The notes beneath the pieces were generated by a model. It was not told the origin of the DNA. It worked only from the letters and a program-made list of their open reading frames with translations, and ran no database searches. A stretch of DNA of 64,000 nt from Yersinia proxima (lineage in GTDB: Bacteria; Pseudomonadota; Gammaproteobacteria; Enterobacterales; Enterobacteriaceae), in NCBI RefSeq assembly GCF_902170785.1, contig NZ_CABHYG010000001.1:186001-250000 (forward strand). Reading direction: 5' to 3'. Positions 42,792-64,000 of the stretch are shown one piece after another. Every line of letters begins with the position of its first letter. Position 1 is the stretch's first letter. A program made the translations under genes and the position numbers.

Positions 42792-45700
42792 TGCTGCCTT
42801 CCGTTGTCAGTCGGCAGGTCGCCGACAGCGTAGCCGAATTTTTACGTGCGGCCTTTCCGCTCAATAGTCCGTTATTCAATGGCGAAGAAAACGAAGATAT
42901 CAATATGCTGGAGCAGTTTTTGCGCCAGCCAGAAGCGTTGCTGAAAGGGCCGTATCTCTCCGCTCAGTTGCCGTTTCGTAAAAGTACTTTGCCGCTGGAT
43001 TTCTTCCCCCATCTGTCGCTGCCGTTCCCGCCGCACGCCCATCAGGCGCAGGCTTTTGAACGGCTGGGAAATGACGAGCCACAGCCAACGCTGGTGGCAA
43101 CCGGCACCGGTTCTGGTAAGACGGAATGTTTCATGTTCCCATTGCTTAACTACTGCGCAGGAACTCCGGGTGCCGGGGTGAAAGCGATAGTGATTTACCC
43201 CATGAACGCCCTGGCAACCGATCAGGCCAGTCGTTTTGCTCAAACTATCAGTGGTGATCCACGCCTGCACGGTAAAGTCACCGTTGGCTTGTTTGTGGGT
43301 GATAGCGAAGAACACCCTAGCAAAAAAATGTCCGCCGATAAGGTGATTACCTGCAAGCACACGCTGCGCGACAGCCCACCAGATATCCTGCTGACTAACT
43401 ATAAAATGCTTGACTACTTGCTGATGCGTCCCGGCGACCAAAAGCTGTGGAGGCACAATAAGCCCGGTATGTTGCGCTATCTGGTGGTGGATGAGCTGCA
43501 TACTTTTGATGGTGCTCAGGGTTCCGATTTGGCCTGCCTGGTGCGTCGCCTTAAATACCATGTCGGTGTAGATAACGCACGTTTTGCCTGTGTAGGTACT
43601 TCGGCGACCGTCGGAGATGAACTGGAGCAATTGCTGGACTACGCGCAAACTATTTTTGATCAGCCGTTTACCGATGCAGCCGTGATCCGCGAAGATCGTT
43701 ATAGCGCAGCCGAGTACCTGCAAGGCTTTGAAATAACTCACAGCCAATATCCCGCGCAAGAAGATAAAAAGGCGCTTGAACCTCATCGTTATGCCACGCC
43801 GGTTGACTATCTAAACGGGCAGATTCCCCTTTGGTTCCCGGAGTGTACATTGCGTCTTCCTGAGAATCTGGAAGACGATAACGGGCGTGAAAAACGCGTA
43901 GCGCTCGGTGAAATGTTACGTCGCCACAGTGTGTTGCATGTATTACTGCGTGATTTACAGGGTGGCATTCTTTCCGAACAGCAGTGCCTTCAAAACCTAC
44001 AGGTCATGCTTTCTGAAAGTCCGGAACACGCCGCTTTGGTGTTGCAAAGTATTCTGGCGCTGATTGCTCAGGCAAGGCTGGAAGTGCCGGAAAACCCTGG
44101 CGACCATCAGCAGCGAATTGCAGCAGGTAAACCACGCCCGGTCTTACCCTTTGTACAGCTGCGTTCACAATTATGGTTACGTGAAATGCGTCGCCTGGTG
44201 GCCAGCGTTTCAAAAACACCGCAACTGGTATTTGCCGATGACCTGACCGTTGAAGACCGAGAACATCATCTGCCGGTCATCCACTGCCGTGACTGCCATG
44301 CCACCGGTTGGGTGAGTATGCGCCACGGGCAAAATGTGCAGCTGGAAACCGATCTTGATGGGATTTATCGCCAGTTCTTTGAAAAGGGCCGCTCGATTGT
44401 GCTGGCCTTCCCGGATAAGAATGAAAAAGCCGTTAGCGGTGTGCATCAAAAATTATGCCCGGCTTGCCTGAAGCTTAATAAGCAAACCAACGTGCAGTGT
44501 GGGCACTGTGGTTATAGCGAAATGGTTCGGGTACTGATCCCTGATATGCTCAAAGAGCGCAAAGACCAGCTTGAGTTCGCCAACGAATGCCCTTATTGCA
44601 ACAGCAAAAATGGTATCTCGATCCTCGGTTCGCGAGCGGCCAGCTTATCGGCGGTGATGATCCACCAGCTCTATGGCAGTAAGTTTAACGAACATAAAAA
44701 GCTGATCACTTTTTCAGACTCCGTGCAAGACGCAGCCCACCGCGCCAGTTTCTTTACTGCCCGTACGTGGCCATTAATGGTGCGTGGGCAGATTGCCCGT
44801 TTACTCAATGTGGGTGAAACCTTAAGGCTGGACGAATTCGCCCAGAAAGTTTGCCAGCAAACTCGTGAGTCTTCGACCGATGACGCACATTTCGTGGCGA
44901 ATTTCATCGCGCCAAATATGCAGTGGCTCAACGATTATCAGACATTAAAAATCGAAGGCCAGCTGACTGAAAATTCGGATCTTCCGGAGTTGGTTCGGTT
45001 ACGTCTCGACTGGGAAGTGTGGAGCGAGTTTACCCTTCGCGCCAGCATCGGGCGAACGTTAGAAACCACGGGGTTTGCTGCTACCGGTGTGGATACTGAA
45101 CGGCTTAATCCGGCTATCAAAGCGCTACATCAGCAGCTTTGCGAAGAGCTGGGTGACCTGATGAATGGCGTGACGGTTGAGCAAGTCACACATCTGGCTT
45201 TAGGGGTTTTGTGGTATCAGCGCCATGCTGGTGCGGTGATGCACCCGGCATTTGAAAGTTATCGCCGGGATGGCACGACCTTTATGATGACGCAAAAAGA
45301 GCGTACATCACGCTACATGCCATCTATCGGCCCGAAAACGCGTAAACCCGTTTACGCCTCATTTGAAAAAATCACCGGCTTCCACCGCCTTATCGGCTCT
45401 AAAGACAACCCAAGCTGGTATCAGCGTTGGTTAACCCGCTCGTTAAACAGCGGCGATAATATTTTCATCAGTAGTACTTCGGAAACGATACTGCGGTTGC
45501 TTTATACGGCGCTGCAACGTGCAGGAATGGTGACATCTTTCGATACCAAAGGCCGTGAAGCCTGGGGATTGAGTACTTCGGCACTGGTTGTTAGCCGCGA
45601 TGTCACCCAGCTCAACTGCACGTGCTGCCGGGAAATCGTTTGCGCTCCAACCGAACAGGCGTGGCTTTGGGAAAATGCGCCCTGTATGTCACTGCGCTGT

Positions 45701-49138: not shown

Positions 49139-51258
49139 CGGTTCAGTCGCCAAAAGTGGCACTTTCTGATGGCTTTTTGGGGGCGTTTGCTCGTATCCCA
49201 AAAGCGCAGCAGAAGAAAGTTCAGGAGTTTATTTCTAAGTTTCGCCAGGATCCCACCAGTAATGGGCTGAACTACGAAAAGATTCACGATGCTCGAAGTG
49301 CCAATGTTCATTCGGTACGCATTGATCAAACTTACCGCGCTATCGTGCTTAAACCAGAACAAGGCGCGATATATATGCTGATGTGGGTGGACAAGCATGA
49401 CGAAGCCTATGAATGGGCGCGCCGTCATGACTGTTCGATTCACCCATTAACTGGGGCGATTCAGATTATTGATATTAGTTATATCAAGGCTGCGCCTGAA
49501 CCTGTTGCACCTGATAAATCTAAGCTGTTTGCTGCATATTCAGCCGATCAGATCCTGGCACTAGGTGTTCCTCCTGTATTTATCGATCAGGTTATGGTTC
49601 TTACGGATGTCTATGGGCTTAACCAGCTTGAAAACGTTATGCCTGCAGAGGCCTGGGAGCCACTTCATTGGTTGTCTGAAGGATTGGATTACCAAGAGGT
49701 TCTGGAAGAGTTTAACGACCGCAAAGATGTGCCTGTCGATACTAACGACTTCATCGAAGCTATTGAACGCAGTAAGCGTCGATTCCATGTAGTGGAAAAT
49801 GAGCAAGAACTGCTCCAAATGCTTAATGCACCACTAGAAAAGTGGCGAATCTTTTTGCACCCCAGCCAGCGTAAGTTGGTAGAAAATCCAGCGACCGGAC
49901 CTGTTCGTGTATTGGGTGGAGCAGGTACAGGGAAAACAGTAGTCGCTATGCATCGTGCAAGATGGCTTGCTCAACGTTTGGGTGATCAACCTGGCAAGAA
50001 AATTCTGTTTACGACTTTTACTCGTAACCTTGCTGCAGATATTCGCGCCAATTTACAGCGTCTTTGTTCTCGTGAAGAAATGGCTCGCATCGAAGTTATT
50101 AATATTGATGCCTGGATGAGTGAACAACTTAAACGTCATGGTTATGATTTCCGTGTAGTTTATGAAAGCGATGAAGGTCGACGTAAATGCTGGAGTTATG
50201 CCTTGCAGCAAGCCCCAGCAGAGCTCGGTTTATCTGATAATTTTTACGCGGAAGAATGGGCTCGGGTAGTGCAACCCAATGCGGTCTACAGTCGTGAAGA
50301 CTACCTTAAAGTTAGTCGGCTAGGGCGAGGAACGGCATTGTCACGTATTCAGCGAGCCAAAATATGGCCTGTATTTGAAGAGTTTCGTTCCCAAATGGCA
50401 CGCGCAAAGTTGCGTGAAATGGGGGATGCGATGCATGAAGCGATTGTCCTGTTTAAAGAAAAACAGGTTCAGTTACCTTATAGCAGCATTGTGGTCGATG
50501 AAGCCCAGGATATTGGTGCTCCGGCCTTTACTCTAATTCGTAGTCTGGTACCTGAGTCGCCTAATGATCTGTTTATTGTCGGTGATGGGCATCAGAGGAT
50601 CTATCGCAATAAGGTTGTTCTGGGGCAATGTGGCATTAATGTCCGTGGCCGCCGAAGTAAGAAGCTAAAAATTAACTACCGTACAACCGAAGAAACTCGT
50701 CGGTTTGCCGTTGGGTTGTTGACTGGAGTTAAGGTAGATAACCTAGATGGTGAAGCAGATGCCAGCAATGATTATTTGTCATTGCTGCATGGTGATTTAC
50801 CAACCATAACGCATGCTACCGATTTTAAAGAAGAAGCAGGCACCATCGTTAAACAGATTCAGGCGTTACTGGCTAATAATGTGCGTTCCCAGGATATTTG
50901 TATAACGGCCCGTACCAAGCACGCCTATGACCGTTATGCTTCTGCGTTAGATGATGCTGGAATTGAAACTTATTCTTTAGGCCAGGACAGCGGTGATACT
51001 GATCAACGTTCTGGGGTGCGTATGGCAACGATGCATCGCATCAAAGGACTTGAGTTCCAGTATGTCTTCCTTGCCGGGATTAACGATGGTGTTGTACCTG
51101 AGGTGAAAGCAATAACTTCAGATGATCCTGTAGAGAAACGTGATGCGTTGTTCAATGAACGAGCATTGCTTCACGTGGCAGCAACACGTGCAGTAAAAGG
51201 ATTATTTGTTTCATCATACGGTAAACCTAGTTTCTTACTGGAGCCTGAAAGCGAGTAA
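49135..51258 (+). CDS. UvrD/Rep-type helicase with RelE-like N-terminal domain
   Basis: 707 aa. Residues 1-120 (RIPKAQQKKVQEFISKFRQ, YEKIHDARSANVHSVRID, YRAIVLKPE) look like a RelE/HigB-type toxin fold, then a superfamily 1 helicase: Walker A GGAGTGKTVV near 261, DEAQD near 456 (IVVDEAQDIG), VGDGHQRIYR, NYRTTEETR, MHRIKGLEF and HVAATRAVKG. The start overlaps the preceding stop by 4 bp (ATGA). It is the last gene before a strong terminator. UvrD-type proteins with this N-terminus often travel with defence operons; its part in this system is inferred. Confidence 0.75.
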   Translation: MTVQSPKVALSDGFLGAFARIPKAQQKKVQEFISKFRQDPTSNGLNYEKIHDARSANVHSVRIDQTYRAIVLKPEQGAIYMLMWVDKHDEAYEWARRHDCSIHPLTGAIQIIDISYIKAAPEPVAPDKSKLFAAYSADQILALGVPPVFIDQVMVLTDVYGLNQLENVMPAEAWEPLHWLSEGLDYQEVLEEFNDRKDVPVDTNDFIEAIERSKRRFHVVENEQELLQMLNAPLEKWRIFLHPSQRKLVENPATGPVRVLGGAGTGKTVVAMHRARWLAQRLGDQPGKKILFTTFTRNLAADIRANLQRLCSREEMARIEVINIDAWMSEQLKRHGYDFRVVYESDEGRRKCWSYALQQAPAELGLSDNFYAEEWARVVQPNAVYSREDYLKVSRLGRGTALSRIQRAKIWPVFEEFRSQMARAKLREMGDAMHEAIVLFKEKQVQLPYSSIVVDEAQDIGAPAFTLIRSLVPESPNDLFIVGDGHQRIYRNKVVLGQCGINVRGRRSKKLKINYRTTEETRRFAVGLLTGVKVDNLDGEADASNDYLSLLHGDLPTITHATDFKEEAGTIVKQIQALLANNVRSQDICITARTKHAYDRYASALDDAGIETYSLGQDSGDTDQRSGVRMATMHRIKGLEFQYVFLAGINDGVVPEVKAITSDDPVEKRDALFNERALLHVAATRAVKGLFVSSYGKPSFLLEPESE

Positions 51259-51438: not shown

Positions 51439-52827
51439 ATGTACATAGAAAAATTTCTGACTGAATACGATGACTCGCTAACAGGTGAATTGAATGTTGA
51501 TCCGCTTGGGCAATTAGTCATCTGGTCGTCCTGGGGACAGGACATCTTTCATAGCCGTATTACTTCTATCGCAAATGATGTGCGGCAATACACGCTGAAT
51601 CTGATGCATCACAGCGTACTGCGCCAGCTGCTGGCAGATGACAAGCAGCAAACTGCTGGCGCGATGAAAAGCCTCTATCATAAAAAGCAGGCGCGCGAGT
51701 TCAGCGCAGCCTGTCTGATCCATCTTGAAAATATCTATATCTACTCCATGCTGGCGGCTGAAAAAAGGGGCGTCATGCTCACCGGTGTGCAGGGTATTAA
51801 TAAAGCCAGGCTAAGATGGAATGCCGCAGACAAAAATCCTCCGTTACATTTTGGTCATGAGAAGGGCAGTGAGCTGCTGACCAATCAGATTGCGCTTGGC
51901 ACCAATGGGCGCTACAAATCGCCAATGATGAATATGCAGTTTTTCACTACAGATTACCGCTACGATCTGCCGGGTAATAAGCCTGTGTGGCAGGCTGCAG
52001 AGGCATTTATCCAGCATGTGCCAGAGCTGAATAAATTACGTGAAGCGGCTCTGACCCACTTGCAGTCACTAATGCAGGTATCACATAAGCGCGATCTCAG
52101 CCCGGTTTACGAAGACATTCCTGCCAGCCTTAAAAAGGCTTATGTGACGGCATTCCGCGCCCCCAAAATGGTGGGTGATTACTCCCGTGAATTCTGGCTG
52201 CAAAGAACAGGTTTGGATAAACACGCGGCTGGGGCGATTTATCTGGTACTTGAGCAGGAACGTGAACGTTCGGACGAACCGGAGCTCACAGTCGCTGAGG
52301 TTTTCAAACGAGCCGTACAACAGGCTAAAAGCGTGCCTGAAATGAATGAAAACGATCTCATGGCGTTACAGAATATCTGCCAGGCTGAGCCGTTTTTGTC
52401 GTTGATCGATCTGATGTTTTCTGGTCTACGCCGACAGGGTAGTCAAACACTGGCAGAGTTCCGTCAATTCTGGCAGTCGCGCGGTCTCACGGAACTACAT
52501 CTGCCTCAAATGGCGGCTCAGCTTCAACAAAATGGTGCACTACTTTCCTCCCTTTCCGGAACTCCCGCTAGACGTTTTCAGCAGTTATTAACGCTGGCCA
52601 GCGAGACATTGCTGGAAGAACAGGTACGGGGTCTGCTGGCCTATCATCACAAGCTAATGGAAGCTCGAGGGCAATTTCCGTGGCTAATGCTGGAAGGCGA
52701 CGAGATTGTGTTGCAAGTGCCGCCGTATTCGCTTCGTGAAGAACGCCGGAATAGCGACTGGGTAAACCGTTACTATTTGCCACAGTTCAGGCACATGCTG
52801 AATGGCTTATGGGGAAGCGCGGCATGA
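51439..52827 (+). CDS. Unknown protein, first gene of the PLD-nuclease/SNF2 operon
   Basis: 462 aa, no domain recognised. Largely helical with few cysteines and no signal or membrane segment. Segments GELNVDPLGQLVIWSSWGQ at the N-terminus and FWQSRGLTELHLPQMA late are notable only as landmarks. The stop overlaps the ATG of the next gene (ATGA), so it is co-translated with a phospholipase-D-type nuclease. A sensor, recognition or scaffold role would be guesswork. An AAAGGA lies 13 bp before the ATG, rather far for a ribosome-binding site. Confidence 0.7.
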   Translation: MYIEKFLTEYDDSLTGELNVDPLGQLVIWSSWGQDIFHSRITSIANDVRQYTLNLMHHSVLRQLLADDKQQTAGAMKSLYHKKQAREFSAACLIHLENIYIYSMLAAEKRGVMLTGVQGINKARLRWNAADKNPPLHFGHEKGSELLTNQIALGTNGRYKSPMMNMQFFTTDYRYDLPGNKPVWQAAEAFIQHVPELNKLREAALTHLQSLMQVSHKRDLSPVYEDIPASLKKAYVTAFRAPKMVGDYSREFWLQRTGLDKHAAGAIYLVLEQERERSDEPELTVAEVFKRAVQQAKSVPEMNENDLMALQNICQAEPFLSLIDLMFSGLRRQGSQTLAEFRQFWQSRGLTELHLPQMAAQLQQNGALLSSLSGTPARRFQQLLTLASETLLEEQVRGLLAYHHKLMEARGQFPWLMLEGDEIVLQVPPYSLREERRNSDWVNRYYLPQFRHMLNGLWGSAA

Positions 52828-54725
52828 AACTGCTAGAAACTTTTAAAAAGCAGATTGCTGAAATGGGCGATCTAAAGCGCGTTTGGCTTACCACCTTTAA
52901 TCTGGATATCTCTTTTGTTGAGACTTGGGTGCTACCTGCTGTACTGGGAATGGATGTGCCTGCGAGTCGTATGGACTATGAAGGCCTGCAACGAGCGCTG
53001 GACGAGAGCGGCATTGATTTCCGCATTTATTGCGATCCGCACATGATGGCGAAAGATAAGCCGAAAAGAACCTCGATAGCGGTGTATCCGGTTTCGGTGC
53101 GTAGGCTGGCTCAAGGCGAAGACTCTTATCTGGACAAGGATCGCGGTCTGTTTCACCCGAAAGTGTTTTATCTCGAAGATCACAACAGAAAGATTATTGT
53201 GGGTGCGGGCAGTGCTAACCTTACGCTGAGTGGATGGGGGCGAAATCAGGAAGCAGTAGTTTTTCGTTGCGTTGCCAGTAATACCCAGTACCAACAGGTA
53301 AAACAGTTTTTTACCTCTATCGACAACAGTTTGAATAAAGAAGCGTTCTTCCCCATACGCCGTAAGTTTCTTGGCGATGATCATGACTGGTCATTTATTC
53401 ACAGTCTGGCTGGCACCACGCTGCTGGATACCCTGAAACAGGGTGTTGAGTTGAAAACGCTGAGCGTCTGGTCACCTTATCTTGCTGCGGATCTGGCAGG
53501 TTTTATTGGCAGGTTAGGGCCGGAATTACACGTAGAATTAGTTCCTGACTTGGTCGAAGGAAGCTATATACGCACTCGCTGGAGTGAAAGTATTCAGGAG
53601 CTAATAACAAGTAAAGCGCTGACCCTTCACGACTCGCCGGCTCCCAAAGACGATCGTGCGTTGATGACCCATGCCAAGCTCTGGCTGGCGAAAAGCAGCA
53701 AAAGCACGCAACTGGCAGTGGGTTCCTGGAATTTCACTTCTCCCGGTTGCAGCAGCCTCATGGAGAAAAACTGGAATGTAGAAGCGGGAATTGTGCATCC
53801 GGTCTCTCGTAACATCACGATTTGCGGCAAAGAATGGGATTATGTTAATGAGGAGGATTTCGCCAGTGAAGCGCTGTTGAAGGAAGAGGTGCTGGAGCTG
53901 GGCGAACTCCCTCCTTTCGATCTCACCGTTATTTTTGACTGGACCCGCTGCGAATATCAGATTGTCGGGCAATGGTTCAGTGGCAAGCCAGAGTCGGGTT
54001 ACCACTTGATACTGCCGGGTATCAATGGGTCGAATGAACTGGTATGGAAAGCTAATGGTAAAGTTCTGAAGTCACCACAGCAATTGGCAGTATTGAAGAG
54101 CGATGCCGTGTTGGATAACCCTTTTTATACCCTGCGTAGAGCAGGAAAAACAGACTGGCAGGGTATGATCGTCGAAACTGGTACTGAACACCGGCGCGCG
54201 CTGAGTTTTACATCGCTCGATGATCTGCTTAACAGTTATCTGAGTTCTGCAGATCCCGGTTTGAGCGATCGCCTTATGCTGCGGGGCGTTGGGGCGCAAG
54301 ACGAAGTGCAAAGTGAGGTAGAGGCAGAAATCGTTAGGCTAGAAGTCACCAGCTATTTCCGCCTGTTTCAGTCCATCCAACAACGTCGCAACTGGCTGGT
54401 AGAGGTGGAAGATGGCACCCTGCTTTATCGTCGTCTGTTCAGCGAACCTGGCTGTCTGCAGGAACTGGCAGAAATAGCCAGAAAGCGGGTGAAGCAACCA
54501 ACCCATCCGGTATTTAACTGGTTCCTGGCGCAGGAAGTTAATAGTCTGGCAGCTCTGGCAATAAAGCGTGTTAAAAGTATCCGACGTAAACAGGGGGCTG
54601 AAGCCATATTTGTCGCAGCGCACTTGTGGGAGTCTCTACAGGTTGCCATTCCACCTCTAACTAGCGATGCCGCTAGCCTGCGTTATCTCGCTGCCATCAG
54701 GGAAGACTGTAGTTATGGCGAATAA
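52824..54725 (+). CDS. Tandem-HxK phospholipase-D-fold nuclease
   Basis: 633 aa from ATG 52824 (MKLLETFKKQIAEMGDL), overlapping the preceding gene by 4 bp. Two HxK half-sites: H111-P-K113 followed by GAGSANLT (S130, N132), and H283-A-K285 followed by GSWNFT (S301, N303). Two halves in one chain form a complete PLD active site. The residues at the +6 aspartate position are not Asp (Glu118 in the first), as in the nuclease branch of the family. The C-terminal part (about 330-633) is unassigned. DrmC of DISARM is also a PLD-fold protein, but much shorter. Confidence 0.82.
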   Translation: MKLLETFKKQIAEMGDLKRVWLTTFNLDISFVETWVLPAVLGMDVPASRMDYEGLQRALDESGIDFRIYCDPHMMAKDKPKRTSIAVYPVSVRRLAQGEDSYLDKDRGLFHPKVFYLEDHNRKIIVGAGSANLTLSGWGRNQEAVVFRCVASNTQYQQVKQFFTSIDNSLNKEAFFPIRRKFLGDDHDWSFIHSLAGTTLLDTLKQGVELKTLSVWSPYLAADLAGFIGRLGPELHVELVPDLVEGSYIRTRWSESIQELITSKALTLHDSPAPKDDRALMTHAKLWLAKSSKSTQLAVGSWNFTSPGCSSLMEKNWNVEAGIVHPVSRNITICGKEWDYVNEEDFASEALLKEEVLELGELPPFDLTVIFDWTRCEYQIVGQWFSGKPESGYHLILPGINGSNELVWKANGKVLKSPQQLAVLKSDAVLDNPFYTLRRAGKTDWQGMIVETGTEHRRALSFTSLDDLLNSYLSSADPGLSDRLMLRGVGAQDEVQSEVEAEIVRLEVTSYFRLFQSIQQRRNWLVEVEDGTLLYRRLFSEPGCLQELAEIARKRVKQPTHPVFNWFLAQEVNSLAALAIKRVKSIRRKQGAEAIFVAAHLWESLQVAIPPLTSDAASLRYLAAIREDCSYGE

Positions 54726-57372
54726 GTTAAAACAGATCATTACCCCGGTTGAGGTTTCAGCCGTGATGAATTTCGATGCGACTGATATGCACTGGCAGTA
54801 TCAATCCGGTGCGTCCAGCATGGCGGCGAAGCAGGCTGAGGGTGTGGCTGGATTGTGGAATTTGCTGAGTAAACAACGACTGGCGCTTCTCGCCGATGAA
54901 GTCGGCATGGGCAAGACCTATCAGGCGATGGGTATAATGCTGCTGTTATGGGAGGCAAAACCCGATGCGCGCATTCTGGTGATGGCACCTAACAGGACGC
55001 TCTGCGACAACTGGGAAAAGGAATTCGGCACCTTCACCCAGAAGCACTACCGGGCAGCGAATAATGCGTTTACCTCAGCAGAGGGGAAGGAAAAATATGC
55101 TCCGCAAATTCAAGGCAGGCTGGCAGATCTGGCGGCAGCTGCGGAGAAAAAGGCACACCATTTCTACCTCACTACCATCCACTCATTAAGCGGCCTGGTG
55201 CCCCAGTCTGAAAAAGAAGATGCTCTGAACGCTGCAGAAGCCTATGGCGCGTCGTATCGTCAGCAGATTAAGCAAGCTCTGGGAAAAGGAGGCTTTGACT
55301 TAATTATCATTGATGAGGCGCACTACTTTCGTAACCGAAGCGGCTCACAGCGCGCTGCTGCCGCTCAGGCCTTCTTTGGTGATGCGCAGGATCGGCTGGG
55401 TAGCAACGTACTACTGTTGACGGGAACCCCCAATCACTCATCACCGCGAAATATTTATGACATTTTTAGCTACTTCAGTGACTTGCCAAAGCGGTACGCA
55501 GTGGATGATGTCAGCGCTCTGATGAATGATTTTGCCATCCGTCGCCTGCGCAAAATGCAGGGCAGGGAGGGCAGTCACAGCAAATATGAATATCGTCATG
55601 AGCGCGCCAGCGTTTCCAACTTTACTGACCGGCTGGATGCAGAGCTGTTCTTTGCTCTTTATCAGAAACAACTGGTTGTCCAGCTGGATAAAGAGAAAAA
55701 GTCGGGTGGCGGCAGACGTATGCTCTATGGCTATCTTGAAGGGTTTGAATCAACGGGTAGCACAGCCAGTGAGCGGGACAATGGTGGCGATGAAGAAGAA
55801 CAAATCCATAACGACTTCAACCAAGCCCCGGATTCTTCTCTGCTCAACAGGCTTACCCGGCAGTTTAACGATATCTATCACCGCTTTCCAGATCACCCGA
55901 AATACGATGCGCTGGTGGATGCCTGCGTTACCAGCGATCCATTCGAGCAGTTGCAGCCGCTACACAGCAGAAAGCATCTGGTCTTTGTGCGCCGCATTCC
56001 GTCGGTGCGCGAAATTACCCAGCGCATCAACGCCCGTTATGACGAAATGATGGCTAAGCGGTTGATGGATGCCTGGCATCTACCCGCTGATGCACGGGAA
56101 AAATGGCGAGAATCGGGTTGGTCGCGGGAAATCTTCGTTGATCTTTTATCGGGAAAATCCAGCGGGGAGCCGGATCTGGAAGAGCATATGCAGGAAGATA
56201 GCGCGGCAGATGAACCCGAAGCAGATAATGAGCTGAAGCTTTCCAGTAAAATAGCGGAGTTGTTTGTAACGAAGAAAACCGGCCTGCGCAGCACTGACTG
56301 TGCCAACGTCAGTTTGCGTTTCCGCCGCCCGGAAAGTCTTTTCTCTCTGTTTCTGGAACCCGCACTGGACGGCACAACTGGTACCTATCGTTATCATTAC
56401 CGAAAAGAGTTTGGTGAACGTCAGCGCGACAGCTATGGTGATGCAGCGCGCGATGCCCGGTGGTCGCAAACCCCATTAGCGGCGGGGATTGAATATACCA
56501 AGGCATTGCCTACCGCCTGGGGACTGATGTTCAATGAGCTCCCGCATCCGGCAAAAGAGCAACTGATAAAGTGGCTCGACCAGCCTAACGGCATGGCAAT
56601 TATTGAAAACTTTGCCAACTATCTGCGCACTGGTTACCTGTTTGCCAGCTCGGTGATGATTGAGCTCTATTGCTGGTTTACTGAGTTCAGGAGTAAACCT
56701 CAAAAGAGCGAAGTTCAGCAGCGCTATGAGCATTTTGTTGAGTGGGTGACCCCCAAACTGAAGAGATCGCTGATGCAGCGTTACTTTGTGGCTGCCATCG
56801 AAACTTTCGAAACACTATGCGTGAAAATTGTTGGTCAGAAGCTGGATAGTAATCAGTACAGCTGGCGCGAGTTTACCAGCCTTAACAGCCCTGGCTGGTA
56901 CGCTAGCGGGCAATCCCACAGCCGTGAACGCTTGATTCGCGGATTTAACTCGCCCTTCTTCCCGAATGTCTTGGTAGCGACTTCAGTATTGCAGGAAGGT
57001 GTGAACCTCCATCTTCAATGTCATCAGGTGCACCATTACGGCATTGCCTGGACGCCTGGTGATAATGAACAGCGGAATGGGCGAGTTGACCGCCTCTTTG
57101 GCCGTATCAATACCATGCTCAAGGTCCAGGGAGAGGCCGAGATGATAATAAATTATCCTTTCCTTGAAGGTTCATTTGACCAGGATCAGTTGGCATCATT
57201 TATTCGCCATAAACATAGTGTTGAAGAGAAGCTTGACAGTTGTGAACCCCAGGATTTCGATAGTGCAATTGATCTCCAGGAGGACACTCAGGATTGGCAA
57301 CGATGGCTACGACAGCCTTGTAAGGACAAGGATAAAGAAGATCCTTATCCAGCAAGGTTTGATCAGCAGTGA
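54715..57372 (+). CDS. SNF2-family ATPase paired with the PLD nuclease
   Basis: 885 aa from ATG 54715 (MANKLKQIITPVEV), overlapping the PLD gene by 11 bp. Walker A DEVGMGKT (Lys67), DEAH at 200-203 (LIIIDEAHYF), TGTPNHS near 240, and a C-terminal lobe ending with ATSVLQEGVNLHLQC and QRNGRVDRLFGR. Expected to translocate on double-stranded DNA. Conserved lobe elements resemble the 954-aa SNF2 protein of the neighbouring operon, but the middle is different. Last gene on the plus strand, facing the minus-strand WYL operon; 57373-57473 shows no clear terminator. Confidence 0.82.
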   Translation: MANKLKQIITPVEVSAVMNFDATDMHWQYQSGASSMAAKQAEGVAGLWNLLSKQRLALLADEVGMGKTYQAMGIMLLLWEAKPDARILVMAPNRTLCDNWEKEFGTFTQKHYRAANNAFTSAEGKEKYAPQIQGRLADLAAAAEKKAHHFYLTTIHSLSGLVPQSEKEDALNAAEAYGASYRQQIKQALGKGGFDLIIIDEAHYFRNRSGSQRAAAAQAFFGDAQDRLGSNVLLLTGTPNHSSPRNIYDIFSYFSDLPKRYAVDDVSALMNDFAIRRLRKMQGREGSHSKYEYRHERASVSNFTDRLDAELFFALYQKQLVVQLDKEKKSGGGRRMLYGYLEGFESTGSTASERDNGGDEEEQIHNDFNQAPDSSLLNRLTRQFNDIYHRFPDHPKYDALVDACVTSDPFEQLQPLHSRKHLVFVRRIPSVREITQRINARYDEMMAKRLMDAWHLPADAREKWRESGWSREIFVDLLSGKSSGEPDLEEHMQEDSAADEPEADNELKLSSKIAELFVTKKTGLRSTDCANVSLRFRRPESLFSLFLEPALDGTTGTYRYHYRKEFGERQRDSYGDAARDARWSQTPLAAGIEYTKALPTAWGLMFNELPHPAKEQLIKWLDQPNGMAIIENFANYLRTGYLFASSVMIELYCWFTEFRSKPQKSEVQQRYEHFVEWVTPKLKRSLMQRYFVAAIETFETLCVKIVGQKLDSNQYSWREFTSLNSPGWYASGQSHSRERLIRGFNSPFFPNVLVATSVLQEGVNLHLQCHQVHHYGIAWTPGDNEQRNGRVDRLFGRINTMLKVQGEAEMIINYPFLEGSFDQDQLASFIRHKHSVEEKLDSCEPQDFDSAIDLQEDTQDWQRWLRQPCKDKDKEDPYPARFDQQ

Positions 57373-57473: not shown

Positions 57474-58001
57474 TTAAAAATTTGTCCCTATATTATTTCG
57501 GTCATGCAGCAGCAGAAATCGGCGCTGCAGTCTCCAGTTGATCAACATATTGGCTGTTGCACGGCCTTGCTCTTTAGCAGCGAAGATGATCTCCAGCGTT
57601 TTTGGGTCGAGCACTGCTGCCAGATTCGCATTAAGATTTTCCAGCTCATGCTCTGTAAGAATGAAGCTTGTCGCAAGCCATGTTACTTGCTCCTGAATGA
57701 GCGTCAGCACTTTAACCCGATCGTCTTCAACCAGAGCACTAGCAATTTTTTTGGAAATAGCTGTAGCAATCATCCCACCTAGTAAGCTGCCTGCTGCGCG
57801 CAAGGTTATGCGCTCCACAATATAACCTGCTAATAGCGGTGGTCCTGCTACAATCAGCACCCCTAGACCTAATACCACACCCAGAATATTGAACGATGCC
57901 CGAAATAACGCTTTAAGAATAACAAACCCTATAACCAGAAGAATTAATACACCAATTATCTGTAGCATTATTATTTTTATCCTTGTTTTAACCGGTTTCA
58001 T
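57474..58001 (-). CDS. Small membrane protein, last gene of the WYL operon
   Basis: 175 aa, unrecognised. Hydrophobic N-terminal half: helix near 12-33 (MLQIIGVLILLVIGFVILKAL), then a Gly/Ala-rich stretch near 38-85 (ILGVVLGLGVLIVAGPPLLAG). The C-terminal half is soluble and helical (DDRVKVLTLIQEQVTWLAT, DPKTLEIIFAAKEQG). Begins 7 bp after the 483-aa gene. An internal ATG at 57968 has AAGGA upstream and is a good alternative start (MLQIIG). Confidence 0.65.
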   Translation of the reverse strand: MKPVKTRIKIIMLQIIGVLILLVIGFVILKALFRASFNILGVVLGLGVLIVAGPPLLAGYIVERITLRAAGSLLGGMIATAISKKIASALVEDDRVKVLTLIQEQVTWLATSFILTEHELENLNANLAAVLDPKTLEIIFAAKEQGRATANMLINWRLQRRFLLLHDRNNIGTNF

Positions 58002-58008
58002 CCCGGCA

Positions 58009-59460
58009 TCACGCCATCATAAAGGCGTCCAAATCATCCGCATTTTTAATGATTTTGTTTTTCGCTACTCCATAGGCCTGAGCAAGTGTAATGCTCGCCT
58101 CGAGTAATTTACGGTTATTTTCAACATTGAAAGCTGCTGCTGTCAGTTCACCTAATGCCGTGAATTCGGACAAGATGCGCTTGAGTGCCTGCTGCTCAAT
58201 GTCATTCAACCGAAGAGTAAAATGGTCCATTCTGGCTTGCAGAGCCTGGCGGGCTTTGCTGTCCAGATTTTTGGCTACGGTGACCATGAACTTCCCGGAG
58301 ATAGAGCCAATCACAGCTCCCAGCACAGGAACAGGGATTAACGCCTGGCCTGCAATGGCCATTGCACCAACAATCGCGGACTCGGCACAAACAATGAGCC
58401 CGAGCTCGGTAAACTCATCAAGATCTATTTCACCCTGCTGGTAAGATAAGGCAAGGCTTCCAACCCCCTTGGCGGCGGTGACAAGTGCGCTGGCGAATGG
58501 TGCTCCCATCGAGGCATAGTTGGTAAGGGTATAAATCGCTCCAGCGGATACACCTCCAATGGCTGCACCTTTTAGTGTATCTAGCCCCACGTCCTGCCAG
58601 TCTTGTGCATCGAACTCACCACAAAATATATTTTTACCGTCACGATACTTGCGGTATATCCCCGTTCCGAGAGCAAAAGCCCCCCCGAAAGCTACTCCCA
58701 TCGCTGTCGCCCGCATGGCTTCGTTCAGCGAAGGCTGGTGATCCTCGATAATTTCAGCTTTTTTAGTCTCGTTCTGCTTACCTAATTCCTGATCATGCTT
58801 ATCAAGTGTTTCGTCGATTTTCCCCCATTGAACGTCTTTGTAATCGGAAACACCTGGGCGCACGACATCGGCAAATGGTCGCCCCGTCACGCTTTCAATA
58901 TCGGCAACTTTATCCTTAATAGCCTGTAATGTTTTTTCGCTCAATCCCTCTACCGGCTTCCCGTCAATGACGTCCTGGATGGTCTGCCAGGTATCTTTCG
59001 GGATATGGTAAAACGGTTCACCCTTTGTGAAGTCGGGATAGGTTTCCATGTGCTTCAGGACATGCGTTAGATTGTTATTAATGCCGTTTATAAATTTTGA
59101 CTGTACTTCAATACCATCAATCTTGTAGTCCGCAGGGGCGGTGCGACCCACCCCGTTAAATGTTGCACCTAAAGCCGACTCATCAACCAATCCCTCATCG
59201 AACGCCTGGCGTGCATTGCGTACGCCCACCTCAAGTTGTTCAGCAATCTCACCGTGCTTGGTACTCATCGAACCCAGAATGTTATTCGGTGACGCAATAA
59301 AATCACGCACCTTCTGCATCTGTTCGCCCGCAAAAGTAAAGGCGCTATCCTGCTGCGCCAACTTAAACAATTTATCCTTGATGCGGGCCTGATTGAGGGC
59401 ATCAACTGCACTGCCGATAACTTGGTCGCCAACCGCATCATGACTATTTAAACTATTCAT
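58009..59460 (-). CDS. Unknown protein with Gly/Ala-rich membrane segments and nuclease-like N-terminus
   Basis: 483 aa, not recognised. Residues 1-240 are soluble; here GRTAPADYKIDGIEVQSKF (Asp ... Gln-x-Lys spacing) vaguely recalls PD-(D/E)XK nucleases with a Q-x-K variant, an impression only. Residues 245-400 hold Gly/Ala-rich segments (MGVAFGGAFALGTGIY, GAAIGGVSAGAIYTL, AIVGAMAIAGQALIPVP) that could insert in membrane. The ending is helical. Starts at ATG overlapping the previous stop (TAATG), so tightly coupled to the 281-aa gene. Confidence 0.7.
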   Translation of the reverse strand: MNSLNSHDAVGDQVIGSAVDALNQARIKDKLFKLAQQDSAFTFAGEQMQKVRDFIASPNNILGSMSTKHGEIAEQLEVGVRNARQAFDEGLVDESALGATFNGVGRTAPADYKIDGIEVQSKFINGINNNLTHVLKHMETYPDFTKGEPFYHIPKDTWQTIQDVIDGKPVEGLSEKTLQAIKDKVADIESVTGRPFADVVRPGVSDYKDVQWGKIDETLDKHDQELGKQNETKKAEIIEDHQPSLNEAMRATAMGVAFGGAFALGTGIYRKYRDGKNIFCGEFDAQDWQDVGLDTLKGAAIGGVSAGAIYTLTNYASMGAPFASALVTAAKGVGSLALSYQQGEIDLDEFTELGLIVCAESAIVGAMAIAGQALIPVPVLGAVIGSISGKFMVTVAKNLDSKARQALQARMDHFTLRLNDIEQQALKRILSEFTALGELTAAAFNVENNRKLLEASITLAQAYGVAKNKIIKNADDLDAFMMA

Positions 59461-60305
59461 TACTGGATTTTCTTGTTGATCAGTTTTGACAACGCATTGA
59501 TATGGTTAATCAACGCCCCTAGCTGATCTTTCTGATGCACATTGAACTGGCTATAGTCTCGCGGTGCGGTCTTTTCCAGTGCATCGACGATGCTTTCAGT
59601 GCCATGATAATGCTCTGACGTTAACACCTTTAGTTCCTGAGCTCCGCGTTCCATCACTCTCAATTCGCTGGTTTTGGCGCGAACCTGGCGATCTTCGCGC
59701 TGAGCTTCGTCAATAATTTTTCCATTCTTACGACGAGCCAGTAAGGTTCCTCCCGCAATACCTACGGCACCAATTCCCCAACCGACTGGACCCGCTAACG
59801 CCAGCAATGTGCCTCCAGCGGACATGCCTCCGCCGCCAGCTGCCAGTGCACCACCACCAAGCCATGCCAACGCAGCATTCGTTGCCGCAGCGCCGCTTAA
59901 AGTTGCAATTGCGGTACCCGTTGAGGCCGTACCAAAAGTCGTTGCAATGGCTAAGGCTGCCGTGGGGGCAAATGCTGCGACTCCCGCTCCGGCTGCAACC
60001 CCTGCGGCAGCGGTCCCTTTTCCAACGTGTGATGTTCGGTATTCTTCTTCCAGTTTTTCGACGACGTTATCGAATTCAGCAATTTCCGCTTTCAGTTCGC
60101 TCCAGGACTTATCAAATTCTTTGGGTTTATTCGCCAGTCGGTTTACAAAGCTTTCACCACGAGTAATCAAATTTTTACTGCACTTTTGGCGCAGCAAAAA
60201 GAGCGCAGTGATCTTTTCCTGAGTATCTTTTGCCTGTGCTTCATATTGGTTAGTTGCTCTGGTGAGACTGGCTAATGCTTCTTTTCTTTCTGAACCGCGT
60301 AGCAT
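59460..60305 (-). CDS. Unknown coiled-coil protein with Gly/Ala-rich hydrophobic centre
   Basis: 281 aa, not recognised. N-terminal coiled coil (about 1-95, LTRATNQYEAQAKDTQEKIT...), a long Gly/Ala-rich hydrophobic block (about 100-190, GKGTAAAGVAAGAGVAAFAP ... GPVGWGIGAVGIAGGTLLA) that ends in basic residues (RRKNGK), and a C-terminal helical part. Start ATG 60305 lies 3 bp after the WYL gene stop with AGGAG just upstream. The layout, coiled coil plus glycine-zipper-like membrane part, recalls pore-forming or membrane-tethering proteins; that is inference. Confidence 0.7.
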   Translation of the reverse strand: MLRGSERKEALASLTRATNQYEAQAKDTQEKITALFLLRQKCSKNLITRGESFVNRLANKPKEFDKSWSELKAEIAEFDNVVEKLEEEYRTSHVGKGTAAAGVAAGAGVAAFAPTAALAIATTFGTASTGTAIATLSGAAATNAALAWLGGGALAAGGGGMSAGGTLLALAGPVGWGIGAVGIAGGTLLARRKNGKIIDEAQREDRQVRAKTSELRVMERGAQELKVLTSEHYHGTESIVDALEKTAPRDYSQFNVHQKDQLGALINHINALSKLINKKIQ

Positions 60306-60308
60306 GAT

Positions 60309-61217
60309 TTACTCCTGTTGCATGTCGTCAAAAATAGCCATGCCGTATTTTGTTTCCATTTCAGCCATCTGTTGATTGAGCTTCTGCTGAAAACGATGTT
60401 GCAGGCTAATAGGGGAAACAATAATGAGATTGGGTAACCAGTATCGTAATAGAGGGAAGAGCTGGTTTTCGTGCGCCATTTCGGTTTGCACAATCAAATC
60501 ACCGTTTGATTCTTGTCGTATTAATTTCTGCGCAGGTAATAAGTTGCGCCGCTGAAAGTAGTAGCTAACCTCGGCTGCGATTTTGACGTGTACCGTCTGC
60601 TTATTCAGAGAAAACCAGACATCATCTTCTTCAGCAAAGTACTGGGTTATGTGCCGCTCTGGCGTGAAATGTACGGGAGTAAGATTCAGCCAGCGAATTT
60701 TACTGAGCTGATAACCCTTCACATTTCCTCTATCCACAGCACCGAGATACCAGACACCTTTTATGTTAATGAGCTTATAAGGGGCAACGGTACGGAGTTT
60801 GTCTTTATAGTGAAATTCGCAAATATTGTTTTCGCGAATCGCTTTATCAAACAGACTAAAGTTATTCTCAAGTACTCGTTGAGCCTCAGGATCGCTCGGT
60901 AAAGCACGGATACTTAACGATGTTAAATCAGGCTGGGAAAAGAGTTTTTTTGCGGGAAATAACGCTTCCATACCTAAAATACGGACGAGATTTTGCAGTT
61001 CTTTTAGTGATTGAGGTTTGGCATAAGCAGGTGCCAGCCTGTAAATACCCTCTCCATTATGGATAATACGATCGCCCAAGCGGTTAAGATCCCGATACAA
61101 GGTGCGTTCACTTATTTTGAATTCGTTCATCAACTTTTGGCGAGACACAAAACCGTATTGATAAAGTTCTGAGATAATGACGGTTATTCTCTGTACCATG
61201 ACTTCATGCCCGCTCAT
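60309..61217 (-). CDS. WYL-domain transcriptional regulator
   Basis: 302 aa. N-terminal winged helix-turn-helix (about 1-60, RQKLMNEFKISERTLYRDLN), then a WYL domain around 140-215 (CEFHYKDKLRTVAPYKLI, GVWYLGAVDRG) and a C-terminal extension (WCX-like, 220-302). AAGGGA is 7 bp before ATG 61217. Such regulators repress many defence operons (for example BrxR in BREX). A perfect 10-bp inverted repeat lies 40 bp upstream, so autoregulation of this gene and the three after it is likely. Confidence 0.9.
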   Translation of the reverse strand: MSGHEVMVQRITVIISELYQYGFVSRQKLMNEFKISERTLYRDLNRLGDRIIHNGEGIYRLAPAYAKPQSLKELQNLVRILGMEALFPAKKLFSQPDLTSLSIRALPSDPEAQRVLENNFSLFDKAIRENNICEFHYKDKLRTVAPYKLINIKGVWYLGAVDRGNVKGYQLSKIRWLNLTPVHFTPERHITQYFAEEDDVWFSLNKQTVHVKIAAEVSYYFQRRNLLPAQKLIRQESNGDLIVQTEMAHENQLFPLLRYWLPNLIIVSPISLQHRFQQKLNQQMAEMETKYGMAIFDDMQQE

Positions 61218-61256
61218 AAGTCTTCCCTTGATAGCTTTTCCCTGATGGTAATCTTA

Positions 61257-61281
61257 CTTACTGACAGGTTATGTCAGTAAG
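61257..61281 (-). promoter_or_regulatory. Perfect palindrome, probable WYL-regulator operator
   Basis: CTTACTGACA-GGTTA-TGTCAGTAAG: 10-bp arms without mismatch and a 5-bp spacer, 40-64 bp upstream of the WYL gene ATG. An extra CTTA half-copy (61253-61256) precedes it. Size and location fit a dimeric winged-helix binding site. The rest of 61218-61388 shows no gene. Confidence 0.7.
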
Positions 61282-61388: not shown

Positions 61389-62759
61389 CTAATTGCTCTC
61401 TGCGGATAACCCATCATAATTGACAAATTGTCCTTTAAAATTAATGACCTGACTGGAAGGTGTGTAGTCCACATCGGAGAGCGACTCATCGCAACGGGCA
61501 ATCGACGGGTCGCTAATTTTCATCCATTCTGAAAATGTTTCCAGAAAACGTAAGCCGCTGTGTTGTACCGGGATGATAACTCTTTCTGTTTGATTTCTGT
61601 CGACGGTGAAAAATGGCACGTCGTAATTCTCGCGGGTTTTATCCCCGTGCGTTAAGTAAGCATTTGCCTTGTCTTTGTTGATGTATGACAGTCCGTGATC
61701 CGAAAAATACATCATGGACCAGTCGCCGCCGTGATGCTCTGCCATGTCATGGATCTGTCCCAGCAGCTTGTCAGTCATAGCGATGGATTTGATATAGCAT
61801 GATATTTCTTTGGCACCCGTATCGATATCATACTGATCTCGTGTTCTCACACAGGCCTGCGGATGTGGCCCCATCAGGTGCAGTACGATGAATTTTTTTC
61901 CATCGCCCTGTTTCAGTGCGGTTTTGAGTTGCGGCAACAACTGATCATCCGGGGAATACGTCCTGTCATCAGAGCTGGCTGATTTAGTAAAATAAGGATG
62001 GTCTGCACTTTCTCCTATTAATGCCATGGGTGAGTCAAAATGACCTTTCCTGCCCTGATTTGAAATCCACCAGGTTTCAAATCCGGCGCGTGAAGCGAGC
62101 GTAACGATATTGTTATTGAGTTCTGCCGCATTACCGCGACTACGGGCCAGTGTATTGGTCAGGGAAAGTACGGTGGAGGGCCCTGCAGAGATATAATGGG
62201 TAAACAGCGTGGCTGGTGTGTTATCAAGCCATGGCGTGTTGGGATACTTTTCCCCGTAGGCATGCAGATAATCGCGGCGTGCGCTTTCTCCGATAACCAG
62301 AATGTAGGTTTTGTGCTGACCCGGTAAAGAGACCGGCTTCCAAATGCTACCCGTGGTCATTATTCTGGCGAAGTACTGATTGTTGTCACGTACTGCCAGG
62401 TAAGACGTATAGATGTCATGAATAAAACGTATCTCAGGTAATCCGCTGCTGAGCACTCGCCCCTGTCGGAGCGGTGACCATAATGCAGAAGCAACGAAGA
62501 ATATGACCAGAAAACTGTAAACGCCCCGTGTGAAGGGTACGCTTTTATGCCCGGAAAACGATGACACGATAGTAGCTATACCGGAGACAATAACAGACGC
62601 AGATAGTAGCCAGGCGGCTGTCGGGATATTACCGACGAACTCATGGGCTTCATTCGTACTGGTGTACATCAGCGAGCCAATGACATTGATATCCGGGAAG
62701 CCATAGTTAATGCCAACCGGCGCATAAAATGCACCAGCCAGTGTAAATACCATCACCAC
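61389..62759 (-). CDS. Phosphoethanolamine-transferase-like protein, 5' end unclear
   Basis: Sulfatase-fold transferase of the EptA/EptC type, which moves phosphoethanolamine to LPS or another envelope target. Seen: nucleophile region LVIGESARRDYLHAYG, LHLMGPHP, and YFSDHGLS (metal Asp-His). From the GTG at 62759 it has 456 aa and about two or three membrane helices. But the frame stays open upstream to 63142 and reads membrane-like sequence (NLYLLLWVLLLHYALGY), with no ATG, GTG or TTG in that part. So the true start is either unusual or lost, and the gene may be 5'-truncated. Confidence 0.7.
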   Translation of the reverse strand: MVMVFTLAGAFYAPVGINYGFPDINVIGSLMYTSTNEAHEFVGNIPTAAWLLSASVIVSGIATIVSSFSGHKSVPFTRGVYSFLVIFFVASALWSPLRQGRVLSSGLPEIRFIHDIYTSYLAVRDNNQYFARIMTTGSIWKPVSLPGQHKTYILVIGESARRDYLHAYGEKYPNTPWLDNTPATLFTHYISAGPSTVLSLTNTLARSRGNAAELNNNIVTLASRAGFETWWISNQGRKGHFDSPMALIGESADHPYFTKSASSDDRTYSPDDQLLPQLKTALKQGDGKKFIVLHLMGPHPQACVRTRDQYDIDTGAKEISCYIKSIAMTDKLLGQIHDMAEHHGGDWSMMYFSDHGLSYINKDKANAYLTHGDKTRENYDVPFFTVDRNQTERVIIPVQHSGLRFLETFSEWMKISDPSIARCDESLSDVDYTPSSQVINFKGQFVNYDGLSAESN

Positions 62760-63261: not shown

Positions 63262-64000
63262 GTAAGCGAACATTGCTGAATTGAGGACAAGGGATCTGCT
63301 TGTACCAATCAAAGCAGTCGAGTCATCCGGGCGGCTCGAAGTCGCCGCTCGTTTACAGCAACGAACTACCGCGATTATGCACTTTGCCGTTCAGAGCGGC
63401 TTAATCGACTATAACCCCGCGCAAGAGATTGCCGGTGCGATTGCTACGGCGAAAAGACAGCATCGTGCTGCTCTGGAACTTAATCGCATTCCTGAATTAC
63501 TTCACCACATCGATCACTATTCTGGCAGGCCGTTAACTCGACTGGCAGTTGAACTCACTTTGTTGGTTTTCATCCGTTCAAGTGAGCTGCGTTTTGCCCG
63601 CTGGTCAGAAGTGGGTTTTGAAACGGCCATGTGGACGATTCCGGGTGAGCGTGAACCACTTGAAGGAGTTAAGCATTCTCAACGTGGTTCAAAGATACGG
63701 ACTCCTCATCTTGTTCCTTTGTCGCGGCAGGCTCTAGGCGTTTTGGAAAAGATCAAAAGCATGAGTGGGAATCGAGAGCTGATTTTTGTAGGCGATCACG
63801 GTCCGCGTAAAACCATGAGTGAGAATACGGTGAACAAGGCTCTGCGAGTGATGGGTTATGACACGGAAACGGAAGTATGTGGGCATGGTTTCAGGACGAT
63901 GGCGTGTAGTTCGTTGATTGAGTCGGGGTTGTGGTCGAGGGATGCGGTAGAGAGGCAGATGAGCCATCAGGAGCGCTGCTTATATTCATAAGGCGGAACA
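63262..64000 (+). pseudogene. Second, degenerate P4-type integrase copy (runs off window)
   Basis: Reads from AELRTRDLLVPIKAVESSGR to ERQMSHQER and is, by eye, mostly identical to the catalytic part of the integrase at 20.0-21.3 kb. The N-terminal domain is missing: homology fades left of about 63262, where one base also seems lost. Near 63975 about 14 bp are missing relative to the other copy, shifting the frame to an early stop at 63991, before the catalytic tyrosine; homology then continues to the window end. Not functional as it stands. Confidence 0.8.

What the first reader, a model, noticed from the sequence alone, without database searches (positions are those of the whole stretch)
57474..61281. 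Unrecognised four-gene operon: WYL regulator plus three Gly/Ala-rich membrane proteins
Seen: a WYL regulator followed, with 3-bp, overlapping and 7-bp junctions, by proteins of 281, 483 and 175 aa, each with Gly/Ala-rich hydrophobic segments, the first with a coiled coil. No known defence system I can name has this set. WYL regulators often govern defence operons, and the block sits inside a defence island. Inference: a regulated membrane-acting (abortive) system.
Basis: partly seen in the sequence, partly recalled or inferred. Interest (0 to 1): 0.75.

Follow-up and report, generated by a model that had tools for sequence, protein, structure and literature searches.

The report
Two-gene membrane defence candidate, WYL-controlled
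A defence island carries a pair of linked genes, probably a membrane-inserting protein and a membrane-bound DNA-cutting-type protein, under their own regulator; the pair recurs in distant bacteria beside phage-defence genes, and the supposed third partner is only the wreck of a related gene.

Summary
The four ORFs exist as described, but the unit is not four genes. (1) The 281-aa (A) and 483-aa (B) proteins are a linked pair, already listed without function in PADLOC (PDC-M09A/B): A lies directly upstream of B in 77 of 79 loci. (2) The 175-aa ORF is a remnant of an ~839-aa YeeR-like gene, intact in sister loci. (3) An inverted repeat lies 61 nt upstream of the WYL gene in 7 of 7 loci holding that orthologue. 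(4) B's N-terminal domain keeps E74, D111 and Q120-x-K122 in 63 of 63 proteins; it is homologous to YeeR and, through a two-sequence intermediate family, to Mrr-type nucleases. Direct B-Mrr comparison gave no signal. (5) A shows weak, sub-threshold matches to ClyA-type pore-former subunits. (6) Relatives sit beside defence genes; the phage sensor JukA follows A-B in five loci, but is absent from this genome. Best reading: a WYL-regulated, membrane-acting two-protein defence module.

The parts
61257..61281 (.). Inverted repeat CTTACTGACA-N5-TGTCAGTAAG upstream of the WYL gene: putative WYL operator
   Evidence: Perfect 10-bp arms, only match in the window with up to 2 mismatches, 0.00 expected in 100 shuffles. 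Core ACTGACA-N5-TGTCAGT lies 61 nt upstream of the WYL start in 7 of 7 distinct loci with this WYL orthologue and nowhere else in the 166 loci held (1,842,268 bases, partly overlapping); outer arms change on both sides in L016, L017, L005, L103; only the 7-bp core is kept in L095
60309..61217 (-). WYL regulator, 302 aa (HTH_DeoR - WYL - WCX)
   Evidence: Pfam over cut-off; orthologues 77-98% in L005/L016/L017/L019 and 74% in L003 = L095
59460..60305 (-). Protein A, 281 aa (PDC-M09A): helical flank - Gly/Ala hydrophobic segment - helical flank (helices inferred from sequence)
   Evidence: PADLOC 7.6e-119; directly upstream of B in 77 of 79 loci
59730..60029 (-). Strongly conserved hydrophobic Gly/Ala segment of A (residues ~93-192)
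   Evidence: Alignments A2 and A4, hydropathy
58009..59460 (-). Protein B, 483 aa (PDC-M09B): N-terminal nuclease-fold-like domain, C-terminal Gly-rich hydrophobic region
   Evidence: PADLOC 1.4e-215 / 7e-212
58981..59274 (-). B N-terminal domain (residues 63-160) with K68-H69-G70-E71-x-A73-E74, D111, Q120-x-K122
   Evidence: 63 of 63 sequences keep E74, D111, Q120, K122; profile homology to YeeR-like and E-type domains
58267..58416 (-). B C-terminal hydrophobic segment with invariant I375-P376-x-P378-xx-G381-xxx-G385
57474..58001 (-). ORF C, 175 aa: remnant of a YeeR-like (~839 aa) gene with two internal deletions; not an independent gene

Best explanation
A-B is a two-protein defence module (PADLOC candidate PDC-M09) kept low by its own WYL regulator bound at the inverted repeat. 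On infection the regulator lets go and/or the proteins are activated. A, a helical protein with a hydrophobic tongue, and B, a PD-(D/E)xK (Mrr-like) nuclease-fold domain fused to a glycine-rich membrane segment, assemble at a membrane; the complex perforates or remodels it and B attacks DNA at that site. In relatives a JukA-type sensor or a dynamin-like GTPase may direct it. Shown here: A-B pairing, purifying selection, conserved inverted repeat, invariant E/D/QxK, homology of B's domain to YeeR-like proteins and to an Mrr-like intermediate, defence neighbourhoods. Inferred: membrane insertion, nuclease activity, infection trigger, repression by WYL, complex formation. The YeeR-like third gene looks accessory: it is broken in the window and in L019 while A-B stays intact.
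For: A directly upstream of B in 77 of 79 loci, 68 of these overlapping or within 30 nt. In an even draw of 398 genomes of the phylum, the window's own included, 4 have B at E<=1e-10 and the same 4 have A at E<1e-100 beside it. E74, D111, Q120, K122 in 63 of 63. hhalign, B-domain vs YeeR-like domain 41.0 against at most 17.6 in 100 column shuffles; vs E-type domain 36.7 against at most 16.6; E-type vs Mrr_cat 28.7 against at most 15.7 in 60 shuffles, aligning E, D and QxK. A: NheB 6 of 60, alpha-xenorhabdolysin A 4 of 60, NheC 1 of 60 members at E<=0.01. JukA is the next gene found, same strand, after B in L028, L038, L046, L057 and L165. HTH-dynamin GTPases near A-B in L022, L089, L094, L007, L008. 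Operator.
Against: Direct comparison of B or the YeeR-like domain with Mrr_cat gave no signal (12.45 and 11.41, below the best shuffles), so the nuclease link rests on an intermediate profile of two sequences. One B-like paralogue (L033, 517 aa) appears by eye to have S at the Q position. A's toxin-family matches are far below curated cut-offs (20.7 vs 125 bits) and may reflect coiled-coil and hydrophobic composition. A vs dynamin paddle barely exceeds block shuffles (66.66 vs 60.25). L056 has B with upstream DNA held but no A; 6 of 398 genomes have distant A-like proteins without close B. No PDB relative. No JukA in the window's own genome. Defence genes were seen both next to A-B and >4 kb away, so no sharp enrichment at A-B is shown. 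No structure model, no experiment.
Confidence: 0.45

Rival explanations
1. Pure pore-forming abortive-infection pair: A and B form a helical pore in the host (or a phage-derived) membrane, and B's N-terminal domain is a catalytically dead, nucleic-acid- or partner-sensing module.
For: Weak ClyA-type matches in A; Gly/Ala hydrophobic segments in both; JukA neighbours, whose known partner JukB makes pores (passages of PMC13282480); no direct Mrr match.
Against: E74, D111, Q120 and K122 kept in 63 of 63 B proteins, more than a dead scaffold would seem to need; A's matches are all below cut-off.
Confidence: 0.25
2. Non-defence role: an envelope- or stress-response membrane module (ter-like, vesicle or dynamin-linked) carried as island cargo.
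For: A-B lies beside ter genes on the two ter-bearing Klebsiella plasmids opened (L004, L014) and a relic of B does so on an E. coli plasmid (L015). L095 pairs the relatives with a protein only weakly TerB-like (E 0.18). Dynamin neighbours. YeeR-like genes sit in CP4-44-like islands, beside an Ag43-type autotransporter.
Against: PADLOC lists the pair as a phage-defence candidate (meaning of PDC from passages of PMC11514479); surroundings include Druantia, Zorya, Gabija, Septu, type I RM and JukA; patchy distribution (4 of 398 genomes).
Confidence: 0.2
3. Toxin-antitoxin-like pair: one of A/B is toxic, the other neutralises it, and WYL represses both.
For: Tight coupling, probable autoregulation, presence on plasmids and IMG/VR contigs.
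Against: Both partners are large, with membrane-type segments and strong conservation; no toxin-antitoxin family matched above cut-off.
Confidence: 0.08

Closest known systems
PADLOC candidate PDC-M09 (A/B)
   Same: A and B match its two model sets over nearly their whole length, in a tight A-B pair
   Different: The PADLOC output gives no function; the WYL gene, the operator and the YeeR-like third gene are not among the M09 models that matched
YeeR (E. coli K-12 b2001, CP4-44)
   Same: B's N-terminal domain is homologous to a domain of YeeR-like proteins with the same E/D/QxK layout; ORF C is a remnant of a YeeR-like gene
   Different: Enterobacterial YeeR-like proteins have a long N-terminal extension that B lacks; A-B was not seen in the six YeeR-type stretches opened (L097-L102). 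K-12 YeeR itself is truncated (510 of ~839 aa; also stated in PMC6480617, passages)
JukAB (jumbo phage killer)
   Same: JukA follows A-B in five loci; a membrane-perforating effector recruited by JukA is the same logic (PMC13282480, passages)
   Different: No JukA in the window's genome; A and B match no JukB-named model (E<=0.1; whether PADLOC holds a JukB model was not checked)
BrxR-family WYL repressors
   Same: HTH-WYL-WCX protein encoded first in the operon, inverted repeat with 5-bp spacer upstream (BrxR: 11 bp imperfect, 5-bp spacer; PMC9122601, passages)
   Different: No PDB chain matched the protein at E<=0.01, so close kinship to BrxR is not shown
Eleos / LeoBC dynamins
   Same: Weak PADLOC LeoBC match of A (6.1e-5); dynamin-like GTPases near A-B in some relatives
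   Different: No GTPase domain found in A; paddle similarity inconclusive

Membership tests
PDC-M09 | Both component models match and the genes are adjacent | tested here: met
PD-(D/E)xK (Mrr-like) nucleases | Conserved E ... D ... (E/Q)xK in order | tested here: met
   E74, D111, Q120-x-K122 in 63 of 63; the meaning of the motif is recalled knowledge
PD-(D/E)xK (Mrr-like) nucleases | Direct profile similarity to Mrr_cat (PF04471) | tested here: not met
   12.45, below the best of 60 shuffles (17.9)
PD-(D/E)xK (Mrr-like) nucleases | Link through an intermediate family (E-type) | tested here: met
   B-E 36.74 vs <=16.57; E-Mrr 28.73 vs <=15.74; E-type profile has only two sequences
PD-(D/E)xK (Mrr-like) nucleases | Alpha-beta core fold and nuclease activity | not testable with these tools
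   structure prediction switched off
ClyA-type alpha pore-formers (XaxA/Nhe) | Curated family score | tested here: not met
   20.7 vs 125 bits for the window's A; 6, 4 and 1 of 60 members match NheB, alpha-xenorhabdolysin A, NheC at E<=0.01. That these families share a fold is recalled
ClyA-type alpha pore-formers (XaxA/Nhe) | Helical bundle with hydrophobic tongue | tested here: inconclusive
   order of segments fits; no structure
BrxR-family WYL regulators | HTH-WYL-WCX architecture | tested here: met
BrxR-family WYL regulators | Inverted repeat upstream of own gene | tested here: met
BrxR-family WYL regulators | Sequence kinship to BrxR | tested here: inconclusive
   no PDB chain at E<=0.01; BrxR sequences were not compared directly
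JukAB | JukA present with the effector | tested here: not met
   no match in the window's genome at E<=0.01; beside relatives in five loci
Bacterial dynamins / Eleos | GTPase domain | tested here: not met
   none among Pfam matches of A or B
YeeR | ORF C is a full-length member | tested here: not met
   only the two ends of the ~839-aa protein remain

The most novel reading that the evidence does not exclude
B, YeeR-like and E-type proteins form one superfamily of membrane-tethered Mrr-like nucleases. B's standing partner A is a ClyA-like helical pore protein that opens or docks on a membrane (in JukA-bearing relatives a phage-derived vesicle) and so gives the nuclease access to enclosed phage DNA: a coupled perforate-and-cut defence, with the widespread E. 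coli yeeR genes as kin.
Probability: 0.2. Interest if true: 0.8.

Novelty: new variant of a known kind. Interest (0 to 1): 0.55.

Why it matters
PDC-M09 is a listed candidate with no function in the library searched (0 papers for the name), found here in bacteria as far apart as enterobacteria, cyanobacteria, lactococci, Bacteroidales and Rhodococcus. A testable two-part logic (membrane protein plus QxK nuclease-like domain), a defined operator, and links to JukA and to YeeR turn it into an experiment. One 260-bp stretch of the YeeR-like remnant has matches in 2166 of 5426 E. coli genomes, and the passages read on yeeR assign it no function.

Tried and rejected
Rejected or without result: (a) ORF C as a third membrane partner: it is a deletion remnant. 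(b) A four-gene recurring system: beyond enterobacteria and one IMG/VR contig I saw only A-B recur; WYL-type genes lie in the held DNA of 16 of 79 loci at E<=1e-4, some divergent or distant. (c) A as a dynamin fragment: similarity to the dynamin paddle 66.66 vs a best of 40 block shuffles of 60.25, inconclusive. (d) Homology of A to the 516-aa partner of the E-type protein in L055, or to the JukA proteins: no signal (24.45 and 13.02, below the best shuffles). (e) Direct B-Mrr homology: no signal. (f) Pfam on 63 B proteins: scattered weak hits (DUF3482 in 11, EcsC in 9, SLATT_fungal in 6, Apolipoprotein in 6; best E among these 0.0014). (g) PDB sequence searches with the B and A profiles: best E 0.057 and 0.12; with the E-type protein 0.16. 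(h) E-type relatives in viral contigs: none; in plasmids: one record. (i) Sigma-70 promoter scan: 5 sites vs 6.6 in shuffles, none at the operator. (j) PHROGs: A matches a tape-measure family at 2e-6, taken as compositional. (k) Papers: searches found no paper on this pair.

Limits of counts: neighbour scans used 127 of 148 nearest genes and 127 of 138 drawn distant genes, and PADLOC printed only the 25 commonest families of each; genes were called by a greedy ORF picker (>=100 aa); both sets contain defence genes. The 79 loci come from the best 80 of 244 relatives among 506 pattern matches, so distant forms are under-sampled. In the 77 of 79 count, L018's A is cut by the contig end and B is split in L083 and L092. 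JukA was sought in 49 of the 79 genomes by tool and in the ORFs of the held loci by script. The operator shuffle kept base composition only (4 of 2000 reached 10-bp arms). Phyla are read from organism names.
Full report
Observation. The four ORFs are on the minus strand at the stated places and with the stated junctions. The WYL protein has HTH_DeoR, WYL and WCX domains over Pfam's cut-offs. No Pfam or NCBIfam family reaches its cut-off in the other three. PADLOC, however, has full-length models for the 281-aa and 483-aa proteins, PDC-M09A and PDC-M09B; PDC stands for phage defence candidate (PMC11514479, passages). A full-text search for PDC-M09 found 0 papers, so the pair is listed but, as far as this library shows, not described. 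The island is genuine: DruH3, DruE3, a DrmD-like helicase, a type IIG enzyme, a second DruE-like protein, a GajB-like helicase and PDC-M27A/B/C lie in 25-57 kb; tRNA-Leu(caa) lies at 19756.

The third gene. The 175-aa ORF matches only the two ends of an ~839-aa protein that follows B in L016, L017 and L005. At DNA level the window shows a ~1.97-kb deletion with 4 bp of overlap at its ends and a second of ~80 bp with 13 bp of overlap, relative to L016. The 839-aa protein is YeeR-like: K-12 YeeR aligns over residues 1-508 at 66% and is itself cut short at 510 aa, as PMC6480617 also states (passages). In L019 (Serratia) the gene is also broken. It is uninterrupted in L005, L006, L016, L017 and the viral contig L103. 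A and B stay intact with dN/dS of 0.03-0.06 (A, five comparisons) and 0.06-0.13 (B, four; the fifth saturated); the YeeR-like gene has 0.05 between L016 and L017, so it too is constrained where intact. I read it as an accessory that can be lost.

The core. A pattern scan of one genome for each of 84,980 species found 244 relatives of B among 506 pattern matches; the best 79 loci were kept, from proteobacteria, cyanobacteria, Bacillota, Bacteroidales, Herpetosiphonaceae and others by organism name. A ends within -100 to +200 nt of B's start in 77 of 79, and in 68 of these overlaps it or lies within 30 nt. The exceptions are L056, where the upstream DNA is held and no A was found, and L088, where B starts 386 bp from the contig end. 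Plasmid relatives (64 of 72,556 records) are in Klebsiella, Lactococcus, Leptolyngbya, Niallia, Rhodococcus and others, with A beside B in all eight full-length Lactococcus-to-Klebsiella loci opened and; one E. coli record holds only a relic of B. Five of 5426 complete E. coli genomes have a near DNA match, three over at least 80% of the query. In an even draw of 398 genomes of the phylum, the window's own included, 4 have B at E<=1e-10 and the same 4 have close A beside it; 6 more have only distant A-like proteins. Eight IMG/VR contigs matched the B profile; six of them have A beside B, and two match only around the IPxP hydrophobic motif.

Regulator and operator. Upstream of the WYL gene is a perfect 10-bp inverted repeat with 5-bp spacer at 61257-61281, unique in the window. 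The core ACTGACA-N5-TGTCAGT lies 61 nt before the WYL start in all 7 distinct loci held that carry this orthologue (window, L005, L016, L017, L019, L095, L103) and nowhere else in the 166 loci held. Beyond the core, arms of 10-14 bp stay symmetrical although their letters differ between loci; in L095 only the 7-bp core is symmetrical. L095 is telling: the same WYL protein (74%) and core repeat precede a different set, a distant B-like (525 aa), a weakly TerB-like 190-aa protein (E 0.18) and a distant A-like (342 aa). BrxR uses an 11-bp imperfect repeat with 5-bp spacer to repress its own promoter (PMC9122601, passages). Autorepression here is inferred.

Protein B. All 63 aligned B proteins keep K68, H69, G70, E71, A73, E74, R106, D111, Q120, K122 and H137; the lactococcal and actinobacterial members in A1 lose E71 but keep E74, D111, Q120, K122. 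The layout E - D - QxK is that of Mrr-type PD-(D/E)xK nucleases (recalled knowledge). Profile comparison shows this domain shared with YeeR-like proteins (41.0; best of 100 shuffles 17.6) and with an E-type protein that follows A-B in L055 and has a relative in Paracoccus L111 (36.7; best shuffle 16.6); YeeR-like vs E-type gives 25.4 (best shuffle 16.4). The E-type domain matches Mrr_cat at 28.7 (best of 60 shuffles 15.7), aligning E, D and QxK; B and YeeR-like directly against Mrr_cat give nothing. One paralogue seems to have SxK (L033). I take the nuclease fold as likely (about 0.65) and activity as unproven. The C-terminal half is hydrophobic and glycine-rich with an invariant IPxPxxGxxxG.

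Protein A. Flanks rich in helix-forming residues surround a strongly conserved Gly/Ala segment. Of 60 A proteins, 6 match NheB, 4 alpha-xenorhabdolysin A and 1 NheC at E<=0.01; the window's own match is far below the curated score. The PADLOC LeoBC match (6.1e-5) and the dynamin-paddle comparison are compatible with shared membrane-insertion chemistry but are not proof.

Neighbours. Among 289 genes within two positions of A-B in 79 loci, clusters include WYL-type regulators (11) and HTH-dynamin GTPases (3). The next gene called downstream of A-B in L028, L038, L046 and L057 is JukA: PADLOC hits in those genomes fall at those coordinates, with the four JukA proteins 50-97% identical to each other. 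L165 has the same order, and L084 has JukA 2.4 kb away. In the other genomes with JukA among the 49 searched, it lies elsewhere. JukA senses early proteins in the phage vesicle and recruits effectors such as the pore-former JukB (review PMC13282480, passages). The four named loci are all Burkholderiales by name, so they may reflect one ancestral event; L165's species is not told. Known defence genes stand both next to A-B and more than 4 kb away, and Zorya is near the E. coli copy L006.

Verdict. The best-supported picture is a WYL-regulated two-protein module acting at a membrane with a probable nuclease-type domain. The mechanism is inferred throughout; no structure model could be made.

Noticed in passing
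57474-58001: Deletion remnant of a YeeR-like gene; the same gene is also broken in L019 and truncated in K-12.
   Followed up: yes
L095 7420-11539: Same WYL regulator (74%) and core operator precede a different set: distant B-like, weakly TerB-like and distant A-like genes, a little downstream of a ychF-like gene (name recalled).
   Followed up: partly
L055 9938-12786; L111 1897-4200: A second pair (516 aa plus E-type nuclease-like 433 aa) follows A-B in Alkalihalobacillus; in Paracoccus a 767-aa ORF carries the E-type domain in its second half, perhaps a fusion of such a pair.
   Followed up: partly
L007, L008, L022, L089, L094: HTH-dynamin-like GTPases near A-B in Lactococcus plasmids and three proteobacterial loci.
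   Followed up: partly
L004, L014, L015: On two Klebsiella plasmids A-B (on an E. coli plasmid a relic of B) sits next to a HAD hydrolase, a VWA gene and ter genes; in L014 B is annotated as a sulfite exporter, which nothing here supports.
   Followed up: no
61389-62759: Phosphoethanolamine-transferase-like gene (sulfatase domain) upstream of the operon, 456 aa as called; the ORF at the same place in L016 is called at 588 aa.
   Followed up: no
51439-57372: PDC-M27A/B/C set, another listed candidate, directly left of the finding.
   Followed up: no
42791-51258: Second DruE-like protein and a GajB-like UvrD helicase in one co-directional run; not assigned to a known system here.
   Followed up: no
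19756-19840: tRNA-Leu(caa), a possible integration site of the island; integrase-like ORF at 63281-63991 (by eye).
   Followed up: no
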